Source of the DNA: Dactylonectria macrodidyma
Taxonomy: Eukaryota > Ascomycota > Sordariomycetes > Hypocreales > Nectriaceae
Length of the DNA: 64,000 bases
NCBI GenBank assembly: GCA_020744425.1
Contig: JAGMUV010000048.1
Span: forward strand, 217,815 to 281,814
Direction of reading: 5' to 3'
Part shown: piece after piece, positions 28,507 through 54,715 of the stretch
How positions within the stretch are numbered: the first letter of the stretch is position 1
Layout: the number at the start of each line of letters is the position of its first letter
The notes under the pieces: model-generated
What the model saw: the letters and a program-made list of their open reading frames with translations, nothing else
Database searches by the model: none
Told to the model about the DNA's origin: nothing
Made by a program: the position numbers and the translations under genes

Positions 28507-28508
28507 TA

Positions 28509-29035: not shown

Positions 29036-29418
29036 TGTCACGGCCTAGGTTCCTACCAGGCGGTCAGGAACGGCAGAACGATAGGACCCGCATCTGGCTC
29101 AGACTAATAGCATGGCCCTGCCCCAGGACTGACGCCCTACTAGGACTAATAGCGACAGTCCAGGACTAATAGCAGTCCTCCAGGTAGGATAGTAGTCTAC
29201 TTAGTATATAGTTATCTGAGAAGTGTATATTTAGTATAGGCAGCTCCTTAGCTATTAATATAACTTAATTATATTAAGTATATTCTACTTTACTATTACT
29301 AGATATAATAAGCATTATTTAATCTTAACTCGCCTAATTACTTTATTATATAAACCCTTAGATTAGGACTTAGTATATACTAGCCTTATGAGGATAGTGT
29401 ATTAACCTAATTATTATA
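29036..29418 (+). repeat. G1 left LTR, 383 bp
   Basis: Starts TGTCACGGCCTAGG and aligns without length change to 53850-54232. Differences seen are C/T and G/A transitions, as RIP produces. Confidence 0.9.
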
Positions 29419-29519
29419 TATTAATAGCTCTTATTTACTATATTACTTATATTAAGCTTAAATAATATTAAATTACTATAATAGCTTTACTTATTATACT
29501 TAGTTTAACTCTATTCTCC

Positions 29520-30720
29520 TTCTATTAGCTAATAGGCAAACTACTTATCCTAGTCTTAATAGATATAAATAATAAAGAAGAAATCATTATACTTATAAGT
29601 CATAAAGTAGAAGTATATAAGCTAGAGTAATATAATAAATGACTTAATAATATATTTAATAACCTTACTAAAGCCTCTTATAAGGATGCTATTAAGAAGT
29701 AAGGATAAATTAATAACTTGAATAACTAAGTTAAAGCACTTATAGATAAACTTAAGAGGCTTACTAAGGCCTCTAAGAAATAAACCAGCTTCTATAAAGA
29801 CTATATTAAGAACCTAGCCTCTAATTTAGTAATAGGAAAAGACGCTAGAGAAATCCTTAAACTAAGACAACTGGACCCCTATAACAGATCTATAGCTATG
29901 CTCTAAGGATTCTTAACACAGCTCAGGGCCTACTAGTTATATTATTTAACTCAGTTTATTACTAATAATACTAAAGTCTAGCATACTATAAGGTTCCTTA
30001 AGGATAAAGCTTTCTAATAGTTTAAACTTATTATAAAGGACTATATTAATTATATCTACGCTAATAGAAAAGAAGAAACTAGGGCTATTTATAGAAGCTA
30101 TAAAGTCTTTAAATATAAGCTTAAAAGCGCTTTCAGACTCTAGGATAAGAAACGAGTAGTAGAACAGCAAATCCAGAAACTCTATTAAAAAGGAGCAGTA
30201 TCTATATATATAGCCAAATACTGTAACCTTACCTTATGACTTAACTAAGGAGAAGAAGGATATATAGTAAGCTTTTATAAAGGGTTAAAGTCTAATATTA
30301 AAGACATAATAGTTAGGAAAACTAAGCTTACTATATATAATAGACTAGTATAACTTACTATAGAAATCAATAACTAGTAATTTAAAAGATAATAGGAAAA
30401 GAAGGCTAAGAAGTCTAGAAGATCTTACACCCTATAATAGAAGAATAGAGGAAACTATACAAACTATAAGAAGAAATAACAAACGGATACCTCTTATAGA
30501 ATAGACTTAGGCCCTATAAATATTAGGATAGTTAAGAAAGACTACTCTAAGGTCCTCTATTAGAACTACAGCGTCCTAGGATATACTTCTTATAAATACT
30601 AAAAGCCTAAAACTGACTAATAATTCAAACTAGTATTAGAAAGTAAGAAAAAGGTAGGATAAGTTAGCTAATAAGAAGAAGAACCCTAAATAGGTAAGAA
30701 AATAGTTATAATAGCTAGAG
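29520..30720 (+). pseudogene. G1 gag, RIP-inactivated
   Basis: Fragments such as KDYINYIYANRKEETRAIYR and KKRVVEQQIQKLYQKGAVSI have capsid-like helices. At 30558-30599 the nucleocapsid knuckle keeps its C-x2-C-x4-H-x4-C spacing, but every ligand is now tyrosine (TAT/TAC). Stops are frequent. Confidence 0.7.
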
Positions 30721-31070
30721 CAGATTATAATAATATGGGGATTTTATCTAATAAAATCACCCCCCTTATAAATAAAGAACTTAAAAGTAAAGAAATACTT
30801 AAAGGTAAAACCTATAAAGAAGGAAAGCTAAGCTAGAAGATAGAAAAAGAATGATAAGTACCCTTCGAAGATTGATAGAAGGGTATGACTTTTAATATTA
30901 ATAATATCTTAATGCTTTAAACACTAGTTCTATTACCTTTAAGGCTAAAGAAAGAAGGATTACTTCATAGTACTATTAGAAAGATTAATATAATTAGAAA
31001 GAGTAAGGAAATCCGAAAGAAAGATACCTTTAAGTATATTTAACTAATAGTAGAAATAATAGATAAAGAA

Positions 31071-31507
31071 TGTAACGGTCGTGTTCCCAGGCTAGGCTAT
31101 ACGGGGTATAGGGTAGCTTGGAAAGGGTTCCTAAGGGATAGACCAGGGTCTATATTAGCAGAACAGTTAGGTCATACTTACTAAGCAGTAATTATAGTAT
31201 TACATTAGGTAATAGTCAATATATGATAATATGTAGTAATCAGAGTAGATTAAGGTAATTAAGTTATATTAATAGCTAAGGAGCTAGTATCTTAGTAATA
31301 GCCAGTTCTTTAGGTTTATATACTATATAGTATAAGGTCTGATTACTTATATTATAAGGGCGATCGTAGTAATTGTAGAAGTGATTATAGTGATTATAGG
31401 AGTGATTATAGTGATCGTTTTATAGTTTGTAGTGATTGTTTGTAATTAGTAAGAAATTTGTAGGGGCTATGTAATGCTAGGCGTCTATTATTATACGGGT
31501 TATGATA
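31071..31507 (-). repeat. G2 LTR, left copy (3' LTR)
   Basis: 437 bp, begins TGTAACGGTCGTG on the plus strand. Differences from the copy at 38786 in the part I compared are all transitions. Confidence 0.9.
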
Positions 31508-31620
31508 TAATATCTCCCTTCTGTTAGTCCTTGTCCCTAAGGCCTATAAGTCGGCTGTCTTAAGTTTCTCCCTAGTTTATCTAACCTTCCTTTATAATTA
31601 TTTTTCTATAATGCTAATAG

Positions 31621-32230
31621 TATGTTGAAAGTGAAATCACAGTCTGCTGCGCGCTATTACTGTCTTTATGAACTTATTAAAGAAATGGGCTCTGAGGTTA
31701 TTGAGTGCTTAAATTGCGCTTAATAGAAATTAAAGTGTAAAATGCTTAAGGGCATTTCCCGTTATTCTGAGTGCGTTCGTTGCGGTCATTCTTATGATGG
31801 TTTAGGGGAGTCGATCTCTATATGTAAGTGCCTATTTCTATCTTACCTAACTCTTGCCTATGCTAACCGGACAGCTTTCCGTTTAATGGCTAAGAAATGT
31901 CGCTTAGAGTCTGAAGAGGAGTAAGTAGAAGAGGAGTTAATAGAGTTATAATAGTAAATGAATGAGCGTTTATCTTATCTAATGTGGCTTTATTATTAAT
32001 GAAAATAGCTTTAAGAGAGAGGCGTGGAGATAGTGCATTAGGGTCTTCGTTCTCTGGATGAGCTGGATGAGGTGGAGCGCTAAGAGGCTAATGTAGTTAT
32101 CGAGGTCTAGGCCTATGGTGGGGTGGATGTAATTAATTGGTCTACTATGTTTGATTTTAGTACTGCTTCTTCGTCTTCTAGTATTGTGTATAGAATGTCT
32201 TTAGTAGATGCTGTGCGTAGATAAGGTTTT
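31621..32230 (+). pseudogene. Extra convergent ORF of G2: cysteine motif plus coiled-coil-like protein
   Basis: Runs opposite to gag-pol, ending near the chromodomain. Reading through two TAA/TAG stops it gives SRYSECVRCGHSYDGLGES (a C-x2-C pair), then a charged segment KCRLESEEE and further acidic/helical text. Codon use is less RIP-worn than the rest of G2. This resembles a gene of unknown function that I recall near fungal Gypsy elements. Its role is unknown. Confidence 0.5.
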
Positions 32231-32249
32231 CTAATAGTTATTATGATAT

Positions 32250-32480
32250 TTCGCTTTTAGGATAGTCTTTTTACTTTATAAGGTATATTGTCTTTCTGTC
32301 GATTTTCTTTATATTGTGGATTTCTTTAATGTAGTATTCTTCTAGGTCTTCTACTACTAGTTCGTGACTTTATCCATTATTAACTAGAATGGTGTTTTCC
32401 GTTGATTCTAGTAATGAGATGTAAAAAACTAGGTAATGTTATATTTTTAGGTCTAGTCTGTAGTTATTTTCTGAGATTTT
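32250..32480 (-). pseudogene. G2 chromodomain region
   Basis: Minus-strand text VVEDLEEYYIKEIHNIKKID, then KTIYLIK and a TAA where W is expected, then KDYP and QLLENL. This matches the E-x-I-L ... Y-L-V-K-W-K-G-Y ... chromodomain core found at the integrase C-terminus of chromoviruses. Confidence 0.65.
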
Positions 32481-32799
32481 CTTTAAAACTTCGTAGGGTC
32501 TGATATATTTATAGTCAAGTTTTTTACTTAGTCTGTCTATTAATAGGTTTTTTATTACTAGTAGGACTATGTCTCCCTTTAAAAAGGATAGTCCCTTTAG
32601 CCTTTTCTAGTTATAGTATTTTTTCATTTATCCTTATATGAATTCGAGTTCGGTTTTCATTTCTTTATAGAGATTTTTCAGTTAATCTAATATTAGAATT
32701 GCTTTTAGGTTAATGATTCTATTATACTATTATTAGTATATATCTAATATGAATCTGAAATTAGCATAGTATAGTATAAGCTTAGTGCTTTTATTAGTT

Positions 32800-35700
32800 A
32801 TAGTATTATAACTCAGTTATGCTATAAGTAACTTTTCTACTTAATTGTTTTATTTATAGTTAATATAATATCATAAGTACTATTTAAGTACTTAGTTTAT
32901 GTATTCTGTCTATCTATCGGTCTGTAGTTAAAATGCTATTATAAGTTAGTAATTTAATCCTAATTAGGCCATTAGGGCTTACTAAAACTTAGATATAAAT
33001 AGTGGTCCTCTGTTGCTTAGGATTTCCGTTAGTAAACCGTGTATACTGATAATATTCTATAAGAATAGGTAAGCAAACTATTCAGCATCTGTCAACTCTT
33101 AGTATAATATAAAATAGGAAAATTTTATAAATCTGTCTATAATAATAAGAATACTATCATAGAAGGTGCTATTTGCAGAGTCTTTTAATAGAGGTAATTT
33201 TATAATAAAATCTATTATAATAGAGTCCTATAGTCACTTAGTGACTAGTAGGGGTTATAGTTCTCTATATGGTTTATAGTATTATGCTTTGGTTTTATTA
33301 TATAGTTCATAGGATTTAATAACTTCTATGACTATTCGCTTTATACTAAGAAATGTATATACTATTTTAACTTATTCGAGGGTCTTATTAATTCCTAAGT
33401 GTCTGTATAGAGAGTGGTTATAAATATCCTATACTAAATGTTCTTATAGTTCTGGAGGGACTTATAACCTTTGTAGTCTGAGTTATGATTTAGGAATTGG
33501 GTAAGGTGCTTTTATCACTCTATCCATTTTATATATCTAATTATATTCCTTTATCTATTTATAGAGTATTTCTTAAGACACTATTACTACGATTTGAACT
33601 ATTTTATTAAGTTCGTCAGCCTATTTGAGTTTCTTCTATATCTTATTAAGTTCGCAGTTTTAGTAGTTATCTATCTTCTAACACTCCTTAGCATATTATT
33701 CCAGGAGGTCTATAGAGCATTATTTGCATTATATTATATAATTAATATATGCCTTTATAAAGTCGCTATAGAAATACTAGTAGAGTTTCTTAGCTAGGGT
33801 CTAGGGGTTTTTATAATAGTTGCCTTAATAGAAGTAAGCGATTGCTTAGGATCCTTATATTCTAATTAAGACTGCTTTTCCTTCTTATTATAGTAGTTCT
33901 CTTAGGGCTGGGTGTTCGTTGTGTATTCATTATTTGAAGCTTTGCTCAGGCTTTTATAATCATTCTAGTAAGTCTTCTAGTAGTTATGACTCACTTATGA
34001 CTATAATGTATTTTTACTTAAAATGTCCTTTAGGAGTGTAGGCTAATATTTGCTTATTAGCTTTTAATATATCGATTTTGAAGTTAGGTCGTCGACTTAT
34101 TGCATTAGCTCGTCTGTTTTCTAAGCCTTTCTTATAGATAATAATATAGTCGAATTCTAATAGATATTCTATATAGCGGAGTTATCTTCTACTGAGCTCT
34201 TATATAATTGCGAAGTATAATATATTCTTATAGTCTATATATATAATGACTTAGTATTCACTTCTTAAGAGGTAGTATTAGAATTCTTTAAAAGAGTTGA
34301 CTATTACTAAGAATTCTTTATTATAGATAGGGTAATTGAGTTCAGCTCCTTTCAGTATGTATAAGTAGAATGCGATTAGGTATAGGTTTCCTTTATTATC
34401 CTATTATCCAATCTGGGCTCTTAGAGCGAAGTTAGAAGCGTCAGTTTCTAATTTGATTAGTCATTTTAGGTCAAAGGTTACTAAAACGGGTTCACTAAGG
34501 ATAGCTTGTTTTAAGTCATTAAAGGCCTTCTAGGCCTTTGCATTCTATCTAAAGTTTATATCTTTCTTTATAAGTTCTGTTAAGGGTTTTGCAATTTTAC
34601 TAAATTTATGAATAAACCTTCAGTAATAATTAGCAAACCCTAAGAAGCTCTATACTTCCTTAATACTTTTATCTAGTTTTAGCTAATCTTTAATAGCTTT
34701 GATTTTCTTTTTATTTATTCGGATCTCATTTAATTAAATAGTATATCTAAGGAAGTCTACTTCTTATGTGTGGAACTTGCTTTTCGTTGGTTCTATAAGT
34801 AGTTTCGCATCTTATAGTTTCTATAGGATTGTATGTATATATTTCGTATATTCTTCTTCTATTTCTAAGAAGATTAGGATATTATTAAGATAGTATATAA
34901 TGAAGATGTTAAGATATTCTCTTAGAATGTTAGTAATTATTCATTAGAATGTTATTAGTATGTTTATAAGTCTAAAGGGCATTACTAAATACTTAAATAG
35001 TCTGAACTTAGTTCTGAATGCAGTCTTTTATTCGTCTCTAGGCTTTATATAGACTAAGCTATAAGCGTTTTTTAGGTTAAGCGCTATAAACCACTTTTTA
35101 CTATAAAGGCAGTCTTTTAGTTTAGTAATTAAGGGTAGTAGTATTCGGTCCTTTAGCGTAATGTCATTTAGCTATTAGTAATTTATAATTAATTAAAGTT
35201 TTCTATTCTTTTTTAGAATGAATATAACTAGGTATCCTGCAGAGGATTTTGAGATTTTAATATATCCCTTTTTTAATATATCTTTAAAGTATTCTTTTAG
35301 TATTTATAGTTATATATTATTAAGATTATAGAGTTTAAAGAACTTAGGTGAAGTTCTGTCTTTTAATACTATTTCGTAATCCTATTTATTATATTCGGGT
35401 AGACTTATTTCTAACTCTTTAGTAAATAGTTTTTTATAGATATAGTAAGTAAGTAGTATGTTCTTTAACCTTTTGTCTGCCTCTTATTATTTCTTTATTT
35501 CTATAAGGTCTTTATTAAGCTTTATTAGTTGGCTTTATATAAAGGCAATTGTGCGGCGTGTTTTGCTATTTTAGGCTTTGCAGTGTTTGTATTTTATGCC
35601 TCGGGGTGGGAAAGTTTCTGTTATTCCTTTTGCTAATACTCTGCTAATACTATTATTAGTCGGAGTTTAAAATCTTGCGTTGTTATTTAAATCTGATTCC

Positions 35701-37700
35701 TAAGAGGAGTGATTATTAATATTATCGAAGTTTACTTAGCCAGTCCTCCAGTTTATCATTAGGTTAACTCGTTTTAACTATAGGTACCCTAAGACTAAAG
35801 CGTAGTTTATAATAGGTATTATATTAAATAAGATTCCTTTATTTCATCCTTCTATAAAAACCTTAAGATGATTAAGCTCTTTGGTTATTCTTCTATTATT
35901 GTAATTAAAAGAGGATCCTTTAAGATTCTATACCTTATATGGATTTGCTTTATCCTTCTATAGGAGTTTTAATATATTCATTATTGTAGGGTGGATATAG
36001 TTAAATTCTGCGCTGCTATTTACTAAAGCAGGCAGCCAGTTTCTCTTAATTCGTACTTATATTTCTAAGTACTGTTTTATCGATTGTGCGCTTTTGGTTA
36101 TATATAGAGCTCTTATTTTGAAGGGTTCTGCTTCCCCTAGCTTTATGCCTATCTATTGCTCTATTATAGATAGCGTTAGGAGTTTTTTATACTCTCTGTT
36201 ATTCTGTCTTATAAAGGTCAGAATGTCTGTCTTTGGTTATGCTTATGCTATGCGTTGACCTTATTGTATATATGTATTTAGCACTTAGGTTATTAGTAGT
36301 CTGTAAGTTTTATATTAGGCCTCTGGTAGTTAGTTAGATAGTCTATATTATATTCTATTAATTAAATAATACTAAAGTATTTGTACTATTTCTATATGTA
36401 GTAGTTTTTTATATCTTCCTTTTTATAAGGAGTTATAATAGGTTGTTTGTTTACTTAGACTAGGAAGTAATCTTATTATAGCTTATCTCTAAAGTGTATG
36501 ATATATTCATAGTATATATATAATGCTTATGAGATTTCGTTGTGTTTTTAGTGTGTTTAATACGTATGAGGTTTATCTCCTTATAATTTTCATTCTTTTG
36601 GGTTTTATAGGTTCATTCCGCTCTATTAATATAAGGCTTGGATGTAGATATCTGCTTCCTCTGTAGGATCTTATTATTCCTTAGTGAATTGTTCGATTTA
36701 AATGTCTTCTATTATGCGTATTAATGTGTCTTATTCTTCTAGGGTAATACTTTAGAGTTTGTTATCTAATTTTAAGTATTCATCCGCTAGTATAAGGATA
36801 TCTTTATCCTTAATATCGTACCTAGCCTCCTTGGCTTAGTATATGTTTTATCCTGCGCTAACCTATAGTCTAGGAGCAGGTCGTTATATAATGTAGCTAT
36901 GCGTCGCATTACTATTCATTATAGTAGGTCATTGCTTACTATTCTATTAATAGTTAGGTTATTAGTTAGGGATATCGAATTCGTTGAAATCTTCTATTTG
37001 TATTAGTGGTTCTCTGAGTTATTAGACTATAGTGATAGTATGTATTTTATTATTAGGTCAGGGTGTAATAGCTAGATAACTTAGAACTTGGCCCGTAGGG
37101 ATCGGTTTCTACTTTTTGGCTACTGCTTCTTAGGTTCTTCCTTCTTACTCCCTTTTCTTTTCCGCTTTATATTAGTACGCTACTTCTCGTTTTATTTGCA
37201 GCTATCGCTCGCATGCTTTTAGGTCATCTTTTTCTCTTTCTATCCTTTGGTTCTATTTACTGAGTTTCTTTTTACGTTTTACTTCTTATATTTGCTTATT
37301 CTTAGGTCTGGTTCTTCCGATTAGTCTTCCTTAAGGAAGGTCTTCGTATTTTAGTTCGTCTATCCAATCTTATACGTTTACCGCATTATAGTCATACCCG
37401 TTAAAGCTGCTGTCGAAGCCGCTTCGGGTTATATTAATTGACCGGATTAGGAGGTCGTCTCCTTTCTTAACCGAATTAATGCTATGAGTAAGTGTAGTAA
37501 TAGGCTTGAATGGTTTCTTTTCTTTCCTAGGTTTCTTATAGTCATATGAAAGGTATTCTGGCTTATTGTAGTTATAATAATTGAATGTTTTCTTTCCCTG
37601 CTAGAGTCGCTACTATATTGCTCTAAGTTCTATAGGTCCTGCTGTAATACTGTAGGAGGTGTTAGAGGTTTGTGGTTTCCCCTGGTTAGTATAATTCTTT
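32800..37700 (-). pseudogene. G2 pol (reverse transcriptase, RNase H, integrase), RIP-inactivated
   Basis: The reverse transcriptase core at about 34860-34900 reads YYLNNILIF, where YVDDILIF is expected, so both catalytic aspartates are asparagine. RNase H text includes LETDASNFALRAQIG and IYNKEFLVIVNSFKEFQYYL. RRANAISRRPNFKI marks the end of RNase H. Integrase text follows to about 32800 with stops. The gag knuckle at 37538-37579 again has tyrosine at all four zinc ligands. Confidence 0.7.
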
Positions 37701-38698
37701 CTTTTCTAACTACTGTTATTATTACTGCTAATATTTCGTTTTTCTATTCATTATTTAAATAGTCAGTTATTGATTATAATAGTAAGTTTAGTATACTAGG
37801 CAAAGTCTGTAGGTAGGTCTATATTCTTAATGAGTTTATTTTTAACGTTATCCTTTAGGTTCTAATAGAACTTATTAATAAGGTTTTTATTTAACTAATT
37901 GAGTTTTATTATAATGTATCGGAACTCTAAGAGGTATTCGGATACTGCCTTTATCTACTTGAGTTTCCTAATAGTATTAAGCGCATTATGTTTTTTATCC
38001 TATTCGCTGTAGTTATTGATTAGCGATTGTTCGTATCTATTAAAGCTATCGAACATTATGGTTATCTCAGGCTTTTGCTAACTCAGGGCTTGGGTTACGA
38101 AGTCTTTTAGGATTAACTCATAGTTCTGAGCTGCCTTGCCTTCCAGCCTTCCCATAGCGTGTCATACCTTAAGCGGGTTGCTCGTAAATAGCGATAGGTA
38201 GTATATATAGTAAGACTTGAGGCTAGTAAGGTATTCCTATAGCTTTTTAGGGTTTCTATTAAACTTTAGTAGCTATTTAAGCTTAATGGTTTTTCTAATA
38301 TTATAGATGCATATTACTATAGTGGGCTGTTTATATCCTATGAGTTAAGCTGCTTATTATTCCTAGTTATTCTTAGTTTAAACCAGTTTAGCAGTAAGTT
38401 TAGTAATCTTTCGCTCTATAGCTATAATAATCGTATCCATAGCGGGATTGCTTAGTAGAGCCTAGAGTTATGCATATAACTATTCGAAGCGTTCTTCATT
38501 CTAGCGCTGCTCTTCTTCTCGTATAGCGTTAGTATGCGTTCCTAGAGCCGAGAGCTCGGCGAGTCCTGCAGAGAGTCGTTCATTCTCTGCGCGGAGCTCC
38601 CTAAGTTCCTCTTTATACTTATTATTAGAGGCTTCTATACATTTATCGCTATCTCTGTCCTTAGGGGGCGCTGGGGCCTTTCCCTTAGATAAAGGCAT
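37700..38698 (-). pseudogene. G2 gag, RIP-inactivated
   Basis: ATG at 38698 starts MPLSKGKAPAPPKDRDSDKC, followed by a coiled-coil-like stretch (KEELRELRAENERLSAGLAE). The first stop is after 65 codons, and capsid-like text (LEGKAAQNYELILKDFVTQA) continues past it. Confidence 0.75.
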
Positions 38699-38785
38699 GC
38701 TACTAGAAGGTGTAGCGAGTACTATTATAATCTATTAGATATTGCTTAGTATATAAGGTAACTGTTTGAATAAGAGCTATTAATG

Positions 38786-39222
38786 TGTAATAGTCGTGTT
38801 CTTAGGCTAGGCTATATAGGGTATAAGGTAGCTTAGAAAGGGTTCTTAAGGGATAGACTAGGGTTTATATTAGTAGAACGGTTAGGTTATACTTACTGAG
38901 CAGTAGTTATAGTATTATATTAGGTAATAGTTAATATATAATAATGCGTAGTAGTTAGAGTAGATTGAGGTAACTAAGTTGTATTAATAGCTAAGGAGCT
39001 AGTGTCCTAGTAATAGCTAGTTCTTTGGGTTTATATACTATATAATATGAGGTCTGATTATCTATATTATAAGGGCGATCGTAGTGATTGTAGAAGTGAT
39101 TACGGTAATTACGGAAGTGATTATGGTGATCGTTCTATAGTTTGCAGTAATCGTTCGTAATTGGCGAGAAATTTGTGGGGGCTACGTGATGCTAGGCGTC
39201 TATTGTTGCACGGGTCGTGATA
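38786..39222 (-). repeat. G2 LTR, right copy (5' LTR)
   Basis: 437 bp, ending GGGTCGTGATA, followed by the AAGAA duplication. Same length as the left copy. Confidence 0.9.
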
Positions 39223-39227
39223 AAGAA

Positions 39228-42200
39228 AGTAATATTCTAAATTAATAACCTGCTTTAGAAATACTACTAATTATAGCAGCCCTTTATAAGAGTACTATTA
39301 AAATCTCATAATAATAATAAACAAATGATAAGATTAGATATAAGTACTATTTATATAAAGAAGGAGAGCTAAGTATTAGTATAAGTACTAAAACTAGATA
39401 AATAAGAAGGCTTAGACTCCCTATTACTAATAAAGATATACTAGCCCCTACGGATAAATATCCTAAGTCTAATAACAGCAGTAGTATTAATAATACCTTA
39501 GAGGAAGAATCAGTCGCCTTATAATTACTTAAATAAGAGCTGGAAGAAAACACTCCTAATTTCTCCTTAGGAAAGGATAGAAAAAGCGAGTGAATACTAA
39601 AGTAACTTATTAAAAGAACATTAGATATAGTAAAAGGTTAATCTATTTATATCTACATAATCCAGTAAAAAGACCTTATTAAAGTAGATAGCTAGATAGA
39701 ATAAGTAATTATTAATAATAAACTATTACTATACTTATAATATCCTAAATATATTAATATATTCTAAATATTATACACTTACTATATATATATATTATAT
39801 TACTTTAAAAAACTTTATTATAATTACTATTCTATATGAACTATACTCTAGTTACTATAATGGTTTTATAATAAGACTAAGGCATAGGACTATAGAATTA
39901 TTAAATAGTTTAAAAGAATAGAAATAGCTTAGCTTAAGCTATAAAATAACTTTTACTCTAAAGAATATATTAAAAAAGGCTTAATAATTAATAATTATAT
40001 TATAGAAAAATACTATATATATAAATAAAAAAAAGTATAGTTATAATATAGACTGCTAGAATGTCTAGCTAACTATACTATAAACTATAGTAACTAAAAG
40101 TGCTTTAAGTACGCAAAATACTTATAAATGATCTATAAAAGGATCTATAAGATGCATAAAGATAGATTTAACTTTAAAACCTGCATAAGAGGAGAATGCT
40201 ATAATAGGCTATAGTATAAAGAAATCTATAAGTATATAAAAAACAATACTTACTATTTATAATAAAGCGATAGACGAATATAGTAAAAGTAGAGACATTA
40301 CTTTTAAAAAAGGCTCTAAGTACTATAAGAAGTCCTAAAGAGAATATAATTATAATAAAAGTCTGAATTAATAGAGTATAAATAATAGCGCTAGTAGACT
40401 GTAGTATTACTATAAATTATATCTAACTAGAGTTAGTAAATAAGTTAGTATTATTATAAAGATATAAGAAACTTCTCTATAAAGTATTTAATTTAGAAAG
40501 AATACCTTTTAGCTATAATAAAAGAAGGGTACTATAAGAGATTAATTACCTTAAAGTACTTATAGAAAGAAAGAACCAAAGAGTAGATTTTAATATTCTT
40601 AACATTAAAGACTACTTAGTAATACTTAGATGACCTTAGCTATAAAGACATAACCCTAATATTAACTAAGAGAAAGGCTAAATGCATTAAAAAGACGCAC
40701 CTCCTTAGATTGCAAATAGTAATAGATATAACTTAAGATCTTAAGCTTTAATTAGTAATAAGAATAATAATAAAGTTATAAAAGAAGAAATAATAAACAT
40801 TTTCTTACTTTTAAAAAGAATAAAATAGAAGTACTAATAAGGGAAAATACGATATATAAAACGAGTTATTATATTTATTTAAAAACAGTTTAGATAGATA
40901 GATAAAGACCTTAAAGAGCAGAAAAAGCAATAATAAGTAGAAGAAGAATGACTTAAAAATATACCCCTAAGATACTAAATCTATAAAAAACTCTTTAAAG
41001 AGGAACTTAAGACTAGTCTCTTAGAACTAAGCGAATAGGACCTAGAAATCGTCCTAAAGGATAGGACTAACCCTAAGTTTTTTCCTATCTATAACCTTAA
41101 TAATAATAAGCTAATAATACTAAGAGAATACATCTAAGAAATAAAGAGAAAAGGCTATATCTAGAAATCGAAGTCTTTAGTTAGATACTTAGTTATATTT
41201 ATACTTAAAAAGAACAGAAAGCTATGCTTCTATATAGACTATAGGCAACTTAACTTAATTACTAAGAAGGATCATACACTATTACTCCTAATCCCCAAGA
41301 TGCGCAATAGGCTATATAGGGCTAAGTAGTTTATAGTACTCGATCTTAAAAGAGCCTATAACCTGATCTATATTAAATAAGGATATAAATAGAAGACTGC
41401 TTTTAAAACCAAGTTTAGGCTATACGAATACTTAGTTATGCCCTTTAGACTTACTAATATACTAACCGTATTCTAATGAATGATTATTAATATACTATAT
41501 AAATATCTTAATATCTTTATTATATATTACTTAAATAATATACTCATTTTCTTTAAAAATAAAGAAGATTATAAATAATATATTTATATAATATTATAAA
41601 AGCTATAAGATATAAACTTACTTATTAAACCTAAAAAAAGCAATTTCTATACTTTAAAAGTAGAGTTCTTTAAATATATTATATTTTATAACTAAGTATA
41701 AATAGACCCTAAGAAGATTATAATAATATAAGAATAGAAATAACTTAAAAACCTTATAGAATTATAATCCTTCTTAGGATTTGCAAATTACTACTAATAA
41801 TTCATTAAACACTTTAGTAAACATACTATCCTACTTACTAGGTTTATAAAGAAAGGAGTTAAATTTAAATAGAATAATAAGGCAGAATAAGCCTTTTAGT
41901 TAATTAAGGATATAATCACTTTAAAACCCATCTTAGTATTATTTAACCCTAATAAAGAAATCAAATTAAAGACTAATGCCTTAAGATTTGCTCTAAGTAG
42001 CTAGATTAAATAAAGAGATAAAAACGGATTATTATACTCTATTACATTCTATTTATATAAGATATATAGACTAGAACTTAACTACTCTATTTATAACTAA
42101 GAATTCCTAGCTATTATTAACTACTTTAAGGAATTTTAATACTATCTTTTAAAAAGCAACTATAAGGTCAAAGTCTATACAGACTATAAGAATATCTTAT

Positions 42201-43870: not shown

Positions 43871-43879
43871 TAATAATAG

Positions 43880-44300
43880 AAGAAGAGGAAGGATTAGAAA
43901 CAGAAGGGTTAAATATCCCTAGACCTATAAATACCCAGTTAAAATCATTAGGGATAATAGGCAGTTATAACTCTTACACTACTTAGTCCTCCTAAATATC
44001 TAAAGCCTCTAGCAGACTATCCTCCTCATTCAGACCTTAGAGTCTATAATAGACTATCTCTAAGCGTTTTTCTTTTACTTTACTTTAGGTCTTTTATAAA
44101 TAAGCTAAACAGCCCGCTATAATAGCTATATGCGCTTATAAGGAGGCTAACTCTTCATAAAGCTTTAAGAGATCCTCGCCTGCTTCCTCCTTATCCGCCT
44201 CTAGCTTCTTCTTAATATTCATAAGCTTAAGCACTATAACCAGTTAGTAAGTAAGCATACTAAGAATAAAGAAACTACCTATAAGATAATATAACTTATA
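43880..44300 (-). pseudogene. Convergent coiled-coil ORF of G1
   Basis: Opposite to pol, with restored reading LMNIKKKLEADKEEAGEDLL and KVKEKRLEMVYRGLQGL, interrupted by RIP-type stops. Position and text match the type of extra ORF found in G2. The start side was displaced by the insertion of G3. Confidence 0.45.
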
Positions 44301-44489
44301 AACTATTATAAGACTTCTTTAGTCTTATATATTTACTATAATAAGATAAATTATTAGAAAAGATATAGCTTTTACTATAATGAAAGTACTAACTATAAGG
44401 CATATCTAATAGTACTTTAGTAATAGTAATAGTATAAGAAAGAGCGTTTACTTCTAGAGTTTTATATATAAGCAGTTTCTATATATAAC

Positions 44490-44664
44490 TGTAAGAGTTA
44501 GGGCCGATGGAGCTGTAGTCTTATTAGATAAGAGGCCACGTAATATAGGCTAGACTAGCTCTTTAGTAAGGGCTAGCTAAGCACTCACCAAGTGAACGCT
44601 TACACACCACCCTATACCTACCTTCAGATCTCTTATATAATACCTTAACAGACCAACCCTTACA
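44490..44664 (+). repeat. G3 left LTR, 175 bp
   Basis: TGTAAG...CTTACA ends. Same length as the right copy, with transitions only in the stretch compared. Confidence 0.9.
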
Positions 44665-44899
44665 ATTCGTTCACTTCTACATCCTAGCGGATTGTTAACG
44701 CATTACATAAGATAAGAAGGAACACACTACTGAACCCAAGCATCACCGAGTGAGTAATAAGCGAACTGCGAATAAATACAGGACTATTTACTTATAACCC
44801 TATATAAAACGAAGCTAAGAAAAACCTCAAACTACTAACTGCAGATAATAAAGGATTCTAATCAGAATACAATCTAATCGATCGCTTAATCTAAGAGGA

Positions 44900-46500
44900 A
44901 ACTAAAGTAAGGCCACTCTACATATCCTATAAAGACAGCTTTTATAAAGAATCGCTATTGCCTATAGCTTAATGACTAATAACTAAGCGCTTACTAAGAA
45001 GTCTATAACTAGGTTCTAAAAATAATAGTAATAGAATACAATCACTCCTCTATACTATAATATAATAATAAGAATAAGACTGATGTTTTTAAGAAAAACT
45101 ATTAGAATAACTTACTAGAGGCTTAGATAAAAAAGACCCTAAAGAATATAATAGACCACCGTACTATCCTTACGCAGTATTAACTAAAGGGGCTAATAGA
45201 GTCTAAATCGATAATTAGATAGAGATAGTAAAGATAGCGAATAATCTTTAAGCATCCGCTAGAATACACTAGAAGATCCTCTAGTCTATAATTAAACTCT
45301 CTTTACTATTATAAACCTAGTAAAGAGATTACTTAAAGAACTTCGCATACCTTATATAAGACTAATTTATAGCCTTTCTAAAGAAGCTTTATATAAACCC
45401 TAAATAGAAGGAGGTTAAACTATATAAAGAGCTTATAGCTCTCTAACAGCTCCCCGACCAGTTGCTAATAGAATACTTTAATATATAGAGATCCTTACAT
45501 TCCTTATTAAAGACAAAGGACCTAGAAGAAGATAAGATGCTTATATTATAATACTACTGCAGACTTTAAAATAGGGTTAAAAGAGATATTCGAAAGATAT
45601 AGGTTAATATCTTATAAGCTAGAGAACTTATATTAAAAGCATAATAACTATAGCAACCCTATAGCTAATATAAGGACATACCCTTAAGCTAAGGTAAGAA
45701 AAGAAACTACTCTAATAATAAGTAAGAAGGGCTATAGAAAAGACATATACTAAAGACCTTAATGCATGTACTATAAGGCAGACCCTATATTCCATAAGGA
45801 TAAGGAAACTTAATAAGAGGTAGAAGAAGAGGTAGCTACTCTAATTACTTAGGATCGAACAGTTAATAAGAGTATAGTAAGTACTTAGTAAAGCTAAGAG
45901 ACAATTCTTACATTCAGTACTATAATTATAATAAGAGGGGCCATTTTGCTAGTAAGTATATAATAATTAAAAGAGCTCCTAATAAACAGAACCAAGGAGG
46001 CTACTAGAAAATAGTAACTATATAATAATTTAGTATAAAAGTTAAAGAGATTGACTTATTAGAAAACGACTAGGCATAGGGTCTGAAGACATAACCCCTA
46101 TACTAAAACCATATCTTATGCTAATCAGTCTAATCGCCCAGAGATGAGTGATCGTTCTTTAAGCATATGATAAATATAAGGTCAAAGTAGATATGGATAT
46201 AGTTATAGAAGTTAGCTTAATTAGTAAGAAGCTAGTATAAAAGCTAGGCCTTAAACTTACGCTAGATTAGCGAGCCCTAAAGCTAGTAGGCTTTAATAGG
46301 ACTACTCATCCTATACTATAAGTATATTAAATAACATTCTTCCTCTTTAACTACTAAGGGTTAGTAAGGAAAATAAGATATTTATTTACAGAAGCCCTAT
46401 AGAACTGACCTAAAGGAACAGACAACTTACTATTAATAAGAGAGACTATAAGCTAAGAAGGCATTATAATTAACATACATATAAATACATAGTATTATAA
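44900..46500 (+). pseudogene. G3 gag and protease, RIP-inactivated
   Basis: The zinc knuckle at 45918-45959 reads Y-Y-N-Y-N-K-R-G-H-F-A-S-K-Y. The spacing is intact and H is retained, but the three cysteines are tyrosine. Protease-like text follows (VDMDIVIEVSLISKKLVQKL). Confidence 0.65.
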
Positions 46501-46907
46501 AGCAGTCTTAATATAAGATTCTAACTCCTTTGCAAAAGACCTTATTATAAATAGTAAAAAGGTATATATTATATATATACATAGTATATTAGTGCTAAAC
46601 GAGCGGCCACTGCTTGCCCTTAGAGAAGAGGATGAAGAAGGGATTAGTATACTACTATCCGAACTTAAGTCAGAACGAGAGATCTTTAGCAAAGCTAAGG
46701 CAAAGAAGTTACTGCTCCTAGAAGGAGCAGAACACTCCATTAAACTGATAGAAGGCAAAGAGCCTCCTTTAAGAATAATATACCCTACTAATAAGAAGTA
46801 AGTAGAGATTGTTTGCAATTACTTTACTAAGAATATAGAGATTGGTTAAGTAAATAGCTTAACTAGCAGAGCAGGAGCTCTAGTCCTATTTATTCTTAAA
46901 AAGGATA

Positions 46908-48767
46908 ACGTACTTAATAAGCATGCGCCGCATCCAAGTATGCGCCGCACTTTTCCCTCTTACACTTAACTATTTACTTCATCAATCAAATCTCAACCAC
47001 GAAGCATGCCATAGCAAAATACCGAAGCTAGAACGCTTCTCGCCCTTAAAGCCCTTCAAAATGACCCAAAACTAAGTATCCGACGCACCGCATCGATATA
47101 CGAGGTAGATAAGCGAAGGCTACGTTGCCGACAGAATGGGATTCAATCTCGACGCGATTAGATCCCCTAATCGCGTCGACTAACCGATTTAGAAAAACAG
47201 ATCATTATTCAATTCATTATCGACCTGGATTCGCGAGGATTTCCCCCGCGACTGCGTAGTGTTAAAGAAATGGCTAACCGACTGCTCGCTGATCGCAACG
47301 CGTTACTAGTTAGCAAGCGCTAGGCCTCTAACTTCGTCAGGCAATACTAAGAGCTTAAGACGCGTTTTTTTTATAAATATGACTATCAGAGGGCTAAATG
47401 CAAAGATCTGACTATTATTCGTAACTGGTTTAGGCTCGTAGAGAATATAATCGTAAAGTATGGTATTGACCTTGCTAATATCTATAACTTTGATGAGACT
47501 GGCTTTATAATGGGCGTTATTATAAGCGGAATGGTCGTCATAGGCGCAGATAGGCGTAGAAACCCGAAATCAGTATAGCCTAGAAACCGAGAATGGGTTA
47601 CGGTCATCCAAGCGATTAATGCAGAAGGCTGGGCAATCCAGCCGTTCATCGTGGTTACGGGCTAATATCACCTCGCTAGCTAGTACTAGGAAAGCAACCT
47701 CCCGGGCGATTGGGCTATTACAACGACTCAAAATGGCTGGACTGATAATGAGACGGGTCTTGAGTGGCTCAAGCACTTCAATCAGCATATAAAGGATCGA
47801 TTAATCGGTCACTATCGTCTTCTAATCCTCGATAGGCACGAAAGTCACCACTCTGTCGACTTTGAGAAATATTATAAAGAGAATCGGATCATTACGCTTT
47901 ATATGCTGCCTTATTCATTTCATCTACTTTAGCCTCTTAATGTCAGGTGCTTTAGACCGCTTAAAACCGCCTATGGTCAAGCAATTAAGCAATTGATCAG
48001 ATGCTCTATAACTTACGTTTTAAAGACTGAGTTCTTCCCAGCCTTCTACACTGCCCACGCAGCCACTATAATAAGGAGTAATATTAAAGGAGGTTTTCGA
48101 GGGGCCGGACTTATTCCCTTAAACCCAGAGAATGTCATATCGAAGCTTGATGTGCAGCTACGGACTCTAACACTGGCTGCAGAGGAGGTCGGCCTCCCTG
48201 ACCCTTGGGTCTTAAAGACCCTAAAGACAGTGCTTAAGGCCAGTTCACAGTCTGAATACCTTAAAAGACGAGTAAGAAGACATCAGAGCAGCTCTCTAGC
48301 ATTAATTCTTAAGGCGCTTAAGTCATTTACTAAAGGAATAAAGGCAATAATGCATCAGATGGTATTATTAAAGTCTGAGGTCTAGATCCTTCGACAGGCA
48401 AATGAGACTCTTAGTAAGCGGCGCAGAGCGAAAAGAACCCGCCTACGTAAAGGAGGGAAGATGACTTTAGATAAGGGGAGGGATGAGATAGATTAGAGAG
48501 ATATTAATACGCAGGTAGTGGCTGAATCGTTGAGAAGTGGTGGTAGAGGGAGGTCGGCGCTGCTGAGGGAAAGGCACTGTAGAACTTATAGAAAGGCTGG
48601 TCATAATGTAAGGACCTGTCAGGTTGTAATTAAGACCTCTGGAGAAGAGCATAGCGATTAGTTTTAATTGATTTAATGTTTTGTTGTGGTTTTATTGAGG
48701 TTTTAATTTTGAAGGTGAGGAAAAGTGCGGCGCATACTTGGATGCGGCGCATGCTTATTAAGTACGT
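46908..48767 (+). mobile_element. Pogo-type DNA transposon, 1860 bp, complete with TIRs
   Basis: Ends are ACGTACTTAATAAGCATGC and its exact inverse, with nearly perfect inverted repeats of about 50 bp. Flanked by TA on each side (46906-46907, 48768-48769). It encodes one transposase. It is the least RIP-worn element of the stack, consistent with being the last to insert. Confidence 0.95.
47006..48661 (+). pseudogene. Pogo-family transposase (CENP-B HTH plus DDE_1), RIP-inactivated
   Basis: A single frame of 551 codons runs from ATG 47006 to TAG 48659-48661 with no frameshift. It is interrupted by about a dozen TAG/TAA, each where Q or W is expected. The N-terminal helix-turn-helix/CENP-B type region reads LRSVKEMANRLLADRNALLV. 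Catalytic residues: first D in YNFDETGF, second D in LLILDRHESHHSVDF. The third acidic position, in PLNVRCF, is asparagine where the family has PLDVGCF; a single G-to-A change explains it. The C-terminal part (47993-48385) is fully open and could be mistaken for a small gene. Confidence 0.88.
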
Positions 48768-50049
48768 TAGAGGCATTAGGATATATATTAATTATTATAG
48801 GTTAAATATAATTACTATTAAGAACTATTATCCTCTACTACTGATTAGCGAATTACTTAATAGACTTACTAAAGCGAAATAGATCTCTAAAATTAATATT
48901 CGTAATACTTATTACTATATCTAAATTAAGAAGGAAGACTAGTAAAAGACAGCATTCTGTATAAGATATAGTTACTTTAAATATATAGTTATGCCCTTTA
49001 GGCTAACTAACGCACCTACTACCTTCTAAGTATATATTAACTAAGCGCTTACTAGATTGCTTAATACTTATTATATAGTATACTTAGATAATATTATAAT
49101 ATACTTATAGACATAAGAATAATATACTAAGGATCTAAAAGAGGTCCTCTAGAGGTTAAAAACCTTCTAGCTCTATATAAAGCTACTAAAGTGCGCCTTC
49201 TATTAGAAGGAGGTTGAATTCCTTAGGTATGTAATTATCTAGAAAGGACTAAAGATAGAGCTGAGCAAAGTGCGAGCGATCGTTGAGTAGTAGGTACTAA
49301 AGAGTATTAAAGATATGCAGGTCTTTCTAGGATTCTATAACTTCTATAGGAAGTTCATTCTAGAATACTCCTACTAAATAGCGCCACTAATAGAACTATT
49401 AAAAACTATAGAGAATAAGAAACCCTTCGTATAGGGAGAAGATTAAGATATAGTATTCTAAATACTAAGATCTGCCTTTTATTTAATAAGCATTCTCTAA
49501 TACTAGGACTTAGTAAGAAGAACTAGAGTAGAGACAGATGCCTCTCTAAAGGCAGTCTCGAGCATTTTAACCTAACTATACAAAGAATAATAGAGACTAG
49601 TTACATATTAGTCTCAGAAACTGACAGATACTAAGCAATGCTAGGGCATTAGCTAGTAAGAACTTCTAGCTATTATTAAGAGCCTTGAGAACTAGAGTCA
49701 CTACTTACTAGGACTCTCTGAGAAATTCCTCCTTTTAATAGATTATACAGCTTTTAAAAGAGTGATTAAAACACTAGCTAAAGACCTAAGAAGCAGACTA
49801 GCTAGGTGGGTATATAGATTAGTACCCTTTAACTTTAATATTAAATATAGACCGGGAAAGTACAATCTAGCTAATAGACTATTCTATAGACCTGACTATA
49901 TAGAAAGGGAGATAGCATATGATAATGTGCTTCTAACTTTAGCTAATAAGCTGAACTTTATTAAAGAGCTTCTACTAGACATTCGCCAAATAATCAGCAA
50001 CCTCAAAGGGCAAATAAAGGTTATAAAAGCATACATTCAAGTAGTATAG

Positions 50050-51800
50050 GCGAGCCTAAGAGGCCCTATAAGTCAAGTCAAGTAGTAAGTACCCTTATCC
50101 TACGATTAGAATTAGTATAATAAAACTAAGGAAGATCAGACGCATATAGTATTAATCTCTATAGTTATAAGAGCTAGAATAGCGAGCCGAAAGACTAATG
50201 AATATATAAAGACTGCTTAATAAGAGCTAGCTGCTTATAGAAGTTAGGAAGACTTATCTAAAGCTAGGGTTATTAATCCAGAGTAATATATCTTATGTCT
50301 GATTATAAAGGAGCTTATAATAGGCAAAACAGCATTTTTATTATAACTATTAATAAAGTTAGAAGAATTAGTCTGAGGACTGTAAGCTAATAATCATTTC
50401 TACTAATAATAATTAGCAAGAGTTTGACAAATAGCTAGGAAGATAGGAACCTATTATTATAATGAAAACAGCACCTTATTCTATAAAGGCAGACTTATCA
50501 TTCTTATAGAAGAGACCTTAAGGATAGAAATCCTTTAATGCTATTATAATGACCTAAGAGCTGGGCATATAGGAAAAGCCAAGATGCTAGAATTAATTAG
50601 TAGAAAATTCCATTAGAACTGAATTAGTAAGGATATTACAGACTATACTACTAGATATAAGAAATGCTATAGTATCTTTATACTTAGACACAGGCTATAT
50701 AGAAAGCTGCAGCCATTACTAATACTAGTAAATCCCTTCTAAGAAATTTCTATAGATTTTATTATAGGGTTGCTAAATAGCGCCTAAGCAGATAGCGAGC
50801 AATATAATACTATCTTAGTTATAGTATACTATATAACTAAGTATATAATCTTCATTTTATATAAGAAGATAATAACTACTATATAACTTACATAAGTATT
50901 ATATAAATAAGTTAAATGTAAATTTAATATATTAGAAGGCATTATTAGTAATAAAGATAAGCTATTTATAAGTTAATTCTAGGCTGACTTAATAAAAGAA
51001 CGGACAACCTATCGCTAACTGTCTACTGCATACTATCTACAGACAGACGGGCAGACTAAAAGAATAAACTAACTACTTAAAAAATACCTTTATATCTTTA
51101 TAGAAAATGCATTAGAAAGATAGGCAGTATAGCTAGCAGAAGCTGAGTTTATATATAATAATAGCTAGCATAGTATAATAAGAGTCTCTCTAATATAAGC
51201 ACTATATAGCTACTATCTGAAAATAGTAAGCTATACTTTAGAATACTTAAAGACATAAGTGCAAAGTATTGCTAAATATATAAAGAACATTTAGCAAGTA
51301 TGTACTAAAGCTTAAGAGAGTTAGGCTTAAATAATAGAAATATAAGTAAAAGCCTATAATAAGAGATATATTAAATAAGAATACTATAAAGAATAAATTA
51401 TAGGATTATCTATATATAACTTCTGATTTAAGAATAAGAAACTAATACCTAAGTATATTAAAGTTATTATTATAAAGCGGGTTAGAAAGTAAGTATATTA
51501 AATATACTTATTATAATAATACTATTAAATGCATAATGTATTCTCTATAATGCTCTTAGAACTGTGGCTAGAAGCTTACTAAAGGCATAGTAACTACTTA
51601 GTAGACCTTCTAGACCTAGAAGAAGAGGAAAATGAGTAAGAAGTAGAAGAGATTATCTTAGATAAGAAGACTAAAGAAGATACATTCTACTTAATTAAAT
51701 AAGCAGGTTGGCTAGTAGAATATAATACTTAGGAACTATCTTAGTACTTAGAAAATGTATAAAAAGCTATTTATTAATACTATAAATAGAAGAAATATAA
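50050..51800 (+). pseudogene. G3 integrase and chromodomain, RIP-inactivated
   Basis: Integrase zinc-binding text GHIGKAKMLELISRKFHQN lies at about 50560. The core starts NPFQEISIDFIIGL at about 50730, and QLSTAYYLQTDGQTKRIN matches the Y-H-P-Q-T-D-G-Q-T motif. The C-terminal chromodomain at about 51640-51780 reads EVEEIILDKKTKEDTFYLIK, then AGWLVEYNTQELSQYLENVQ, placing G3 with the chromoviruses. Stops are mostly TAA/TAG. Confidence 0.7.
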
Positions 51801-53541
51801 TTATAAGAAATAGGATAATAGATAATTAAAGATATACTAAAAGCGCACTAATAGCTTATTAAGCAATTAATATTATTTAAAATAAACTAAATACTTAATA
51901 AGGCTAACTAATGCTTAAGCTAGAGTAATTACAGACTAGAACTATAAACCAGAACCAGAGCTATAAAACTAGAGATAATACTCAGTTATAAGACTTCTTT
52001 ACCTAATAGCTGTAGTAAGGATGAGGAGTGTTATTTACATTCACTAAGGGCATGGCGGGCGAAGGGAGAGTAGCTGTAGTAGTAGCCTTAGCCTAGGCTA
52101 TGACTACCTTTACTTTAGCGTAAAGAGATGCTTTGCCTTTATCATTATGAACGAGGGGAGACTTAATAATAGGAGATGGCGAGCGGGCGCGGTATAGTTG
52201 ATGAGGAGTTAGCGGCTTAATAGTAGAGAGAGCGCTAGTAGTATTATAATGAACGGAAGGAGCGCTAGAAAATAAGATAGGTGCTTTAAGAGTAGGATTC
52301 TTATAATACTTCTTAATAGCTATTTTAATATTATTATTAAAATCTTTAAAGTATTTAGCTAAAGATCCTTTAATAAGTATAGAGTATATAAATATCTCTT
52401 TAGTAATTATAAGGCGAGTAAGTATAGAATGAAAGGCAATAGCTTAAGTAAGCTTATAATAGTAAAGAGAAGTAATAGACTTAGAATACTTAGATAGCTC
52501 CTCTTTAGAGATATTAGATAATAGACCTAATTAAATATATATTAGTTTAGATATATAGAAGTAGAAAAGAAATATATAGTAAAATCAGTTTATAACTTTA
52601 TAAATTATATAGAGTATAAAGCCTCTTAATATATTAAGGAAGGATAACTGCTATTTATAAAGTAAGCATTTATTAGGTTCTTAGTAAAAGTAAAGATATA
52701 GCTCTAAGTAGTAGTAGTAGCCTTTATAAATCAATAGATCCTCTAGTATTTAAGATTATTAGGAGCGTTTATATTATCCTTGCCCTAATTATACTAACCC
52801 TAATAATAAAGGAAGTTTTAGTACTATTAAGTAGTAAGAATAAGTTTAGTAAGAATCTAATAATACATTAAATATATAGTAAATACTTAATAAGAACTTA
52901 GAAAGACTTATTATACTGTACTTCTACTTTACTACTTTATAAATAGTATACTAAAAAAATAAAGAGCTATATATATAAGTATAGTTAAAAGAATAGTATT
53001 TCTATTCTATATAATAAGAATAAGGAACTTTATCCTTCAGTATTCTTAAAAACTGGTTATTTAAAAATATATACTTAGTATTAGTCTAAGATTTATACTA
53101 TAATAAGACCTTCGTAATGGCTATAAGGAATGATATTATAGTAGATATATAGCGAATGGACGTAGAATGATCAGTAAGTAGGGAGAGCAGGGAGAAGAGA
53201 GAAGATAATAGGAAAGTATATATAAAGCGAAAAGAAAGGAATATAGTGAGAAAACGAGTATATGAAATTATATAAAGCTAAAGAAAGGAAAATAATAATT
53301 ATAAGTAATACGAAGAATAGAAATATTATAAATTTAAGCAAAGTAGGGCCGTATAGCTAGCGAACACTAACTAAACGCTTAAACTAATAATAAATACCGG
53401 ACCCACAATTCCCATTATTTACGTTCTATAGTATATAGTGAATACGCACTGAATGTACGGATAAATAATGACCTTATTACCTAGACGATAGAGGCATGGG
53501 AATCACGCCTTAAGACGAGGCTTAAGAGAGAGGGAGATAAT
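51801..53541 (-). other. G3 post-pol segment with an antisense low-complexity reading frame
   Basis: About 1.7 kb between chromodomain and right LTR. Between about 52610 and 52000 the minus strand is unusually open and reads proline/serine/alanine-rich text (FSSAPSVHYNTTSALSTIKP and ARSPSPIIKSPLVHNDKGK). It has higher GC than its surroundings. No known domain. Like the convergent ORFs of G1 and G2, it lies opposite to pol. Confidence 0.4.
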
Positions 53542-53716
53542 TGTAAGAGTTAGGGCTGATAGAGCTATGGTCTTATTAGATAAGAGGCCACGTGACATAG
53601 GCTAGACTAGCTCTTCGGCAAGGGCTAGCTAAGCACTTACTAAGTGAACGCTTACACACCACCCTATACCTACCTTCAGATCTCTTATGTGACACTTTAA
53701 CAGACTAACCCTTATA
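53542..53716 (+). repeat. G3 right LTR, 175 bp
   Basis: Ends CTTATA (CTTACA in the left copy), followed by the ATAAC duplication. Confidence 0.9.
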
Positions 53717-53849
53717 ATAACTAGACATATTTATTAGTATAACATATTATAAAAAATATTTAAAAAAGAAGGATAATAAACTAATAGGACTATTAAATAA
53801 AGACTAATTATATAGCTTTAGGAATAAGACCCTAGGAGGAGAGACATTA

Positions 53850-54232
53850 TATTATAGCCTAGGTTCCTACTAAGCGGTTAGGAACAGTAGAATGATAGGA
53901 CCCACATCTGGCTTAGACTAATAGTATAACCCCGCCCTAGGACTAACGCCCTACTAAGACTAATAGTAATAGTCTAAGACTAATAGCAGTCCTTTAGATA
54001 GAATAGCAGTCTACTTAGTATATAGTTATCTAAGAAGTATATATCTAGTATAAGTAGCTCCTTAGCTATTAATATAACTTAGTTATATTAAGTATGTTTT
54101 ACTTTACTATTACTAGATGTAATAAGCATTATTTAATCTTGACTTGCCTAATTACTTTATTATATAAACCCCTAGATCAGGACCTAGTATACACTAGCCT
54201 TATGAGGATAGCGTATTGACCCGATCGTCACA
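53850..54232 (+). repeat. G1 right LTR, 383 bp
   Basis: Ends GATCGTCACA, followed by CCCGA. It keeps more of the original ends than the left copy on this side. Confidence 0.9.
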
Positions 54233-54715
54233 CCCGAGACCTAGAGAGTTGAATCTCTAGTCCCCACAACCCTATCTAACCCCTGTCTTACTATAATCGC
54301 ATTATTACTCTTCTAAAGAATATCTTTTAAGCTAATAGTATTATTACTATACTAAATATACTATATATATTAATTGTAAACACTAAAGGCAGCTATATGT
54401 ATTATTTTAATACTGAAACCCTTTAGCTTTATAAAGTCCTTATATATAAAATATATAACTGATAAGGAAATATCTCCTTTAGCTCTTATTAGATAAGACT
54501 ATAAATAACATATTTAAAATTTCCTGATTTTTAGCTTTATAATAGTATATAATATGCCTCAGAAAGCCTATCTTCCTTATACTATAACTACAAAAGACAC
54601 CTATAATAAGAACCTTTAATAAGATTAGAGTTCAAGCATTAGACATACGTCTAACAGTCCTAAAACTCGGGACATGTCTTACCCGGTTTTACTATGACAA
54701 ATTGTCCAAATCCCC
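54233..54715. other. AT-leaning interval right of G1
   Basis: Begins with the right CCCGA duplication of G1. Mixed composition, no gene seen. Confidence 0.4.

What the first reader, a model, noticed from the sequence alone, without database searches (positions are those of the whole stretch)
29036..54232. Four-element nested stack with every target duplication intact
G1 (383-bp LTRs, CCCGA) contains G2 (437-bp LTRs, AAGAA) and G3 (175-bp LTRs, ATAAC). G3 contains a pogo element (TA). Each LTR pair is equal in length and each duplication is perfect, so insertion order and original reading frames can be recovered. G2 and G3 entered G1 independently; pogo entered last.
Basis: seen in the sequence. 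Interest (0 to 1): 0.75.

Follow-up and report, generated by a model that had tools for sequence, protein, structure and literature searches.

The report
Nested dead jumping genes in fungus
A stretch of a fungal genome holds jumping genes that landed inside one another like Russian dolls and were wrecked by C-to-T mutation, most likely the fungus's own defence; such nests are known, but this one keeps enough landing marks to read part of the order of landings and attacks.

Summary
G1 (29036-54232), G2 and G3 have LTR pairs of exactly 383, 437 and 175 bp, pogo has 51-bp complementary arms, and each has a perfect target duplication. Copies elsewhere in the same genome, apparently Dactylonectria macrodidyma, run uninterrupted through the joints: 11 of 11 examined at G2, 11 of 11 at G3, 12 of 12 at pogo.

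Three things change the reading. (1) There is a fifth layer: G1 lies in a 567-bp LTR-like repeat with its own TTAC duplication; 6 of 6 copies show the empty site. (2) Divergence is repeat-induced point mutation (RIP), not age: 127 of 127 LTR differences are transitions; pogo differs from an open copy at 111 sites, 110 one-way, 104 of them at CpA or CpG. (3) Landing sites carry RIP-type states: G3's duplication in both copies, and pogo's TA reads TG in 2 of 12 relatives. Insertion and RIP may have alternated (moderate evidence).

"Pogo entered last" is not shown: it follows G3, but its order against G2 is open. Nested RIPped clusters are known, so this is a new member of a known kind.

The parts
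28532..28535 (.). TTAC, left target duplication of the outer repeat
28536..29035 (.). outer 567-bp LTR-like repeat, left piece (includes CCCGA 29031-29035)
29036..29418 (+). G1 LTR (383 bp)
29419..31065 (+). G1 interior, first piece
31066..31070 (.). AAGAA, G2 duplication; second copy 39223-39227
31071..39222 (-). G2, LTRs 31071-31507 and 38786-39222; broken pol on - about 36305-33132; antisense to G1
39228..44484 (+). G1 interior, second piece, broken pol about 40382-42817; SH3_Tf2-1 match 43430-43699
44485..44489 (.). ATAAC, G3 duplication; second copy 53717-53721; RIP-type state in both
44490..53716 (+). G3 with pogo inside; LTRs 44490-44664 and 53542-53716; broken pol about 46679-46915 and 48775-50826
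46908..48767 (+). pogo element (1860 bp) between TA at 46906-46907 and 48768-48769; RIPped copy of L057 (C14)
53722..53849 (+). G1 interior, third piece
53850..54232 (+). G1 LTR (383 bp), followed by CCCGA 54233-54237
54238..54304 (.). outer LTR-like repeat, right piece, followed by TTAC 54305-54308

Best explanation
A genuine nested transposon cluster in a RIP-degraded island of a filamentous ascomycete genome. A 567-bp LTR-like repeat landed first; G1 landed in it; G2 (antisense) and G3 each landed in G1; pogo landed in G3's pol gene. Shown: the nesting, exact duplications, empty sites at the four inner joints, and that nearly all divergence is by transitions, in pogo one-way C-to-T/G-to-A at CpA and CpG. 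Inferred: the mutations come from RIP through a RID-type methylase in sexual cycles. Inferred with moderate support: RIP and insertion alternated. In that reading G1 was already RIPped when G3 landed, G3 had been RIPped when pogo landed (RIP having turned TG into the TA that pogo needs), and pogo was RIPped afterwards.
For: Exact LTRs and duplications; empty sites in relatives; full-length sums. RIP: 127 of 127 LTR differences transitions; pogo 110 of 111 differences one-way, 77 at CpA, 27 at CpG, 3 CpT, 3 CpC; G1 against L022: 465 transitions, 0 transversions in 4700 sites; RID-like gene with an open 449-aa frame, one listed homologue named rid1. Alternation: ATAAC in both G3 duplications against 11 relatives none of which read ATAAC, ratio 5.4 (G1-LTR control) or 11.5 (G2-LTR control) for RIP before G3 (5.3 before two doubled copies were removed); TG in 2 of 12 relatives at the pogo target, with 55 transition columns to 1 column holding a transversion.
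Against: Parallel RIP is common: both LTRs carry the mutated state in 36 of 162 usable columns, and window and L022 share it in 278 of 811 columns varying in the trio with L030, so shared states at a 5-bp site are weak proof. At the pogo site two lightly mutated relatives, L047 and L045, read TA. No strand runs in the pogo changes that would mark single bouts. The G2 duplication is uninformative. RID naming rests on similarity and one recalled motif. No reads were seen.
Confidence: 0.9

Rival explanations
1. All insertions came first in a short burst, and the finished stack was RIPped afterwards in one or several bouts.
For: 0 transversions in 995 LTR sites and equal LTR loads allow a short burst; parallel RIP at the same sites is frequent; 10 of 12 relatives read TA at the pogo site, so TA may have been there without RIP of this copy.
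Against: Ratio 5.4 to 11.5 for RIP before G3; TG in the least mutated relative at the pogo site; window pogo is far less AT-rich (GC 0.435) than the tested G1 piece (0.238), though family composition confounds this.
Confidence: 0.4
2. The transitions come from ordinary deamination of methylated cytosine over long time, not from RIP.
For: Deamination also gives C-to-T; a second methylase gene, DIM-2-like (naming recalled), is present.
Against: CpA is hit most (32.5% of sites, against 11.5% CpG and about 1% CpT or CpC); 465 transitions with 0 transversions in 4700 sites leave little room for long time.
Confidence: 0.04
3. The stack is an assembly artefact.
For: The window ends at a contig end; no read data were seen.
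Against: Exact duplications at each joint, LTRs that differ from one another, empty sites in relatives, no N.
Confidence: 0.02

Closest known systems
Nested TE clusters of Mycosphaerella graminicola (PMC4522978; passages seen)
   Same: LTR base element, LTR insertions inside it, verified 5-bp duplication, low GC, RIP-like mutation; 78 putative clusters of 7.5-63 kb reported there
   Different: Here a DNA transposon sits at the innermost level, the base element lies in a further repeat, and landing-site states are used to order RIP against insertion; I saw no such use in the passages
crapaud LTR retrotransposon of Podospora with RIP (PMC10787394; passages seen)
   Same: LTR family with RIPped copies
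   Different: In the passages seen it is studied by LTR networks and trees, not by landing sites in one nest
Ty3/Gypsy LTR retrotransposons (G1, G2, G3)
   Same: TG...CA-type ends, 5-bp duplications, RT-RNaseH-integrase order by collinear homology
   Different: Window copies are broken by RIP
pogo/Fot1-like DNA transposons
   Same: TA duplication, inverted ends, HTH_Tnp_Tc5 then DDE_1
   Different: Window copy is broken; one full copy with an open 563-aa frame was found on C14

Membership tests
LTR retrotransposon (G1, G2, G3) | Direct terminal repeats with TG...CA ends and a short duplication | tested here: met
   Full-length ungapped pairs, 5-bp duplications. G1 and G3 show TG...CA in at least one LTR; both G2 LTRs end in TA, a RIP-type change of CA
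Ty3/Gypsy | RT, RNaseH, then integrase | tested here: met
   Intact relatives L001 and L004 show this order and L001/L003 match G2 and G3 collinearly; in G1 RT-RNaseH and integrase zinc-binding regions match L003 in order, then SH3_Tf2-1. Domains were read from relatives, not from mended window frames
pogo/Fot1-like transposon | TA duplication and inverted ends | tested here: met
pogo/Fot1-like transposon | HTH DNA-binding domain plus DDE_1 transposase | tested here: met
   L057: DDE_1 5.4e-31, HTH_Tnp_Tc5 4.6e-7, both over cut-off; HTH_psq 0.0073, below cut-off. Window piece: DDE_1 1.1e-11
RIP | One-way C-to-T/G-to-A in repeats, CpA preferred | tested here: met
RIP | RID-type methylase in the genome | tested here: inconclusive
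   449-aa frame with PF00145; 698 homologues, best 120 listed, one named rid1; EQT motif (its meaning recalled); no tree made
RIP | Mutation arises in the sexual cycle of this species | not testable with these tools
   needs crosses
solo LTR (outer repeat) | TG...CA ends and fixed-length duplication | tested here: met
   4-bp flanks match in 5 of 5 copies with both ends readable and TTAC in the window
solo LTR (outer repeat) | A full element with this LTR exists | not tested
   no search made for it
nested TE cluster | Base element complete around the inserts, one duplication per insert, empty sites in relatives | tested here: met

The most novel reading that the evidence does not exclude
The landing sites record an alternation of mutation and insertion: RIP of G1, landing of G3, RIP of G3, landing of pogo on a TA that RIP had made from TG, RIP of pogo. 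If general, a genome defence against repeats manufactures target sites for TA-specific transposons and so feeds nesting in its own graveyards.
Probability: 0.45. Interest if true: 0.5.

Novelty: new member of a known kind. Interest (0 to 1): 0.3.

Why it matters
RIP ruins the usual LTR clock, so the relative age of fungal transposon layers is hard to read. Here the landing marks survive and uninterrupted copies exist in the same genome, so insertion and RIP can be ordered, at least in part, from the states of the landing sites with no rate assumed. The transversion counts show how misleading ordinary LTR dating would be: the window's G1 and its relative on C9 differ at about 10% of 4700 sites with 0 transversions. 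The idea that RIP makes TA targets can be counted genome-wide.

Tried and rejected
LTR divergence as a clock: rejected, all 127 differences are transitions and the layers do not differ significantly. Strand runs in the pogo changes as a mark of single bouts: no signal (58 runs, 55.9 expected, z 0.4). The G2 duplication as a second test of RIP before insertion: uninformative (10 of 11 AAGAA, 1 AGGAA). GC rank as a sign of late landing: the window's G2 is the least AT-rich of the 12 copies compared (0.311 against 0.198-0.253), but the G1 piece is fifth highest of 12 (0.238; range 0.156-0.31), so no firm conclusion. Pfam on the 150-aa pogo piece: nothing at E 0.01; the 80-aa piece before it gave DDE_1. 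Solved structures for the C14 transposase: 0 matches. Telomere repeats of two or more units: none in the window. Paper searches on nesting with RIP and on RIP with TA targets (listings only, the first two capped at 15 of 17 and 15 of 134) listed nothing on RIP-made targets by title and abstract start; that is no proof of absence. One search found no paper on this genome's transposons by title. One search gave PMC12543289, of which I saw passages; Dactylonectria is not named in its main text.

Rows dropped or capped: one search printed only alignments crossing the joint; its 13 rows at the G3 joint are 11 distinct copies. One search used 21 G1-LTR rows that hold two places twice; one search repeats it with 19. 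In both, columns with a transversion, or with the unmutated state seen fewer than twice, were left out. Six host-repeat copies were fetched; five had both ends readable. Genome searches scored 40 of 200 candidates, 35 of 208, 18 of 219, 16 of 448, 40 of 421, 40 of 531, 39 of 740, 150 of 388. Sequence was taken for 12 places each, the window itself among them, so G1 interior comparisons used 11 relatives and G2 11 relatives.

Full report
Place. The window is the last 64 kb of contig C43 (281,814 bases) of a 77.3-Mb genome in 77 contigs. A frame at 9265-10506 matches, at 88%, a protein named from Dactylonectria macrodidyma on a contig of exactly that length, and the methylase frame on C1 matches, at 100%, a D. 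macrodidyma protein on a contig of C1's length. It is a nectriaceous ascomycete. Positions 1-27000 have 49% GC and gene-like frames, two with Pfam matches (ankyrin repeats, S28 peptidase); about 27-63 kb is AT-rich, most of it with RIP-like indices.

Check of the observation. Relatives elsewhere in the genome run through the joints: 11 of 11 at G2, 11 of 11 distinct copies at G3, 12 of 12 at pogo. G1's pieces add to 7808 bp and G3's to 7365 bp, the size of copies elsewhere.

A fifth layer. 28536-29035 and 54238-54304 are one 567-bp repeat flanked by TTAC on both sides. Other copies start with TG and end with CA, and in 5 of 5 with both ends readable the 4-bp flanks match. Six of 6 copies run through CCCGA without G1, over 115-142 aligned bases at 92-98%. 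It looks like a solo LTR; I did not search for a full element.

What the elements are. Broken pol of G1 lies on +, about 40382-42817; of G2 on -, about 36305-33132; of G3 on +, about 46679-46915 and 48775-50826, the break being pogo, near the start of the reverse transcriptase (RVT_1 begins at residue 272 of the L001 query, the break is at 279). G2 is antisense to its host. The window pogo has a DDE_1 piece; its full copy on C14 has HTH_Tnp_Tc5 and DDE_1 in a 563-aa open frame.

What mutated them. The 127 LTR differences are all transitions. The pogo against its C14 copy is the cleanest case: 110 of 111 differences put A or T in the window and G or C in C14, none the reverse, 1 transversion; 77 are at CpA, 27 at CpG, 3 each at CpT and CpC. 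G1's second piece against L022 and L030: 465 and 591 transitions, 0 and 1 transversions in 4700 and 4697 sites; against the other 9 relatives 8 to 35 transversions; the G2 interior against 11 relatives 29 to 84. So some G1 copies spread recently and were then hit hard by RIP. The best 2 candidates scored for a DNA methylase domain are two genes: one RID-like (449-aa open frame, homologues include one named rid1) and one longer with a BAH match below its cut-off, DIM-2-like (naming recalled). Passages of PMC12543289 say that in Neurospora Rid1 acts on the repeats and Dim2 on single-copy regions between them.

Age. 0 transversions in 995 LTR sites gives an upper 95% limit of 0.30%. I give no years, since no rate was measured here.

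Order. Nesting gives outer repeat, then G1, then G2 and G3 in unknown order, then pogo after G3. At the G3 site the 11 distinct relatives read ATAGT (5), ATAGC (2), ATAAT (2), GCAGC (1) and GCAGT (1); the window reads ATAAC in both duplications. Taking G and C as older, three of five positions are RIP-type changes shared by both duplications. If G3 had landed before RIP, both would have had to change alike. With the two LTRs of G1 as control for such parallel changes (162 columns, 19 copies) the ratio for RIP first is 5.4; with the G2 LTRs (158 columns, 13 copies) 11.5. That treats sites as independent and is moderate evidence only.

At the pogo site 10 of 12 relatives read TA and 2 read TG. 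One of the two is the least mutated of the 13 sequences compared (13 of 55 columns), the other fourth (22 of 55); the second and third least mutated read TA, which weakens the case. Of 160 columns 55 vary by transition and 1 includes a transversion, so a G/A difference is very probably RIP; L049 and L050 were not tested for being sisters. Pogo elements need TA (recalled), so in this reading RIP made the target. After landing, pogo took its own changes.

Sharp edges. Beside the left G1 joint the outer repeat stays close to its copies, while its last 20 or so bases at the far right end show several C-to-T/G-to-A changes.

Prior work. PMC4522978 reports 78 putative nested clusters, some with verified duplications, and RIP-like mutation in M. 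graminicola (passages). The present case is a well-preserved member of that kind; the reading of RIP order from landing sites is the part I did not see in the listings.

Noticed in passing
54432-54976: A 545-bp repeat about 95-97% like many other copies (195-739 of the query), so hardly RIPped amid RIPped DNA; two other copies have TGTAAAG...CTTTACA ends with matching 5-bp flanks by eye, the window copy does not.
   Followed up: partly
57581-59065 and 61133-62617: Inverted 1485-bp arms, 91% alike, at 19-21% GC; copies elsewhere carry one arm next to a 2.6-kb piece like 54978-57580, so another RIPped element lies to the right of the stack.
   Followed up: partly
27648-28510: Fold-back repeat (86-87% inverted match) immediately left of the outer repeat, with copies up to 98% elsewhere.
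   Followed up: no
G000, many places: LTR elements with long open pol frames and equal scores (for example 13 places with a 1401-aa frame) coexist with RIP-broken families and an open RID-like gene, as if RIP has not acted on them recently.
   Followed up: no
46916 and 48759 (end arms of pogo): Both pogo arms carry the same mirrored RIP-type change against C14 and no other change in 51 bp, so the arms stay perfectly complementary.
   Followed up: no
G000:C45:47826-48272 and C1:4061242-4061289: Pogo-like ends without the interior, each lying about 230-280 bp beyond a G3 copy; perhaps a short non-autonomous relative.
   Followed up: no
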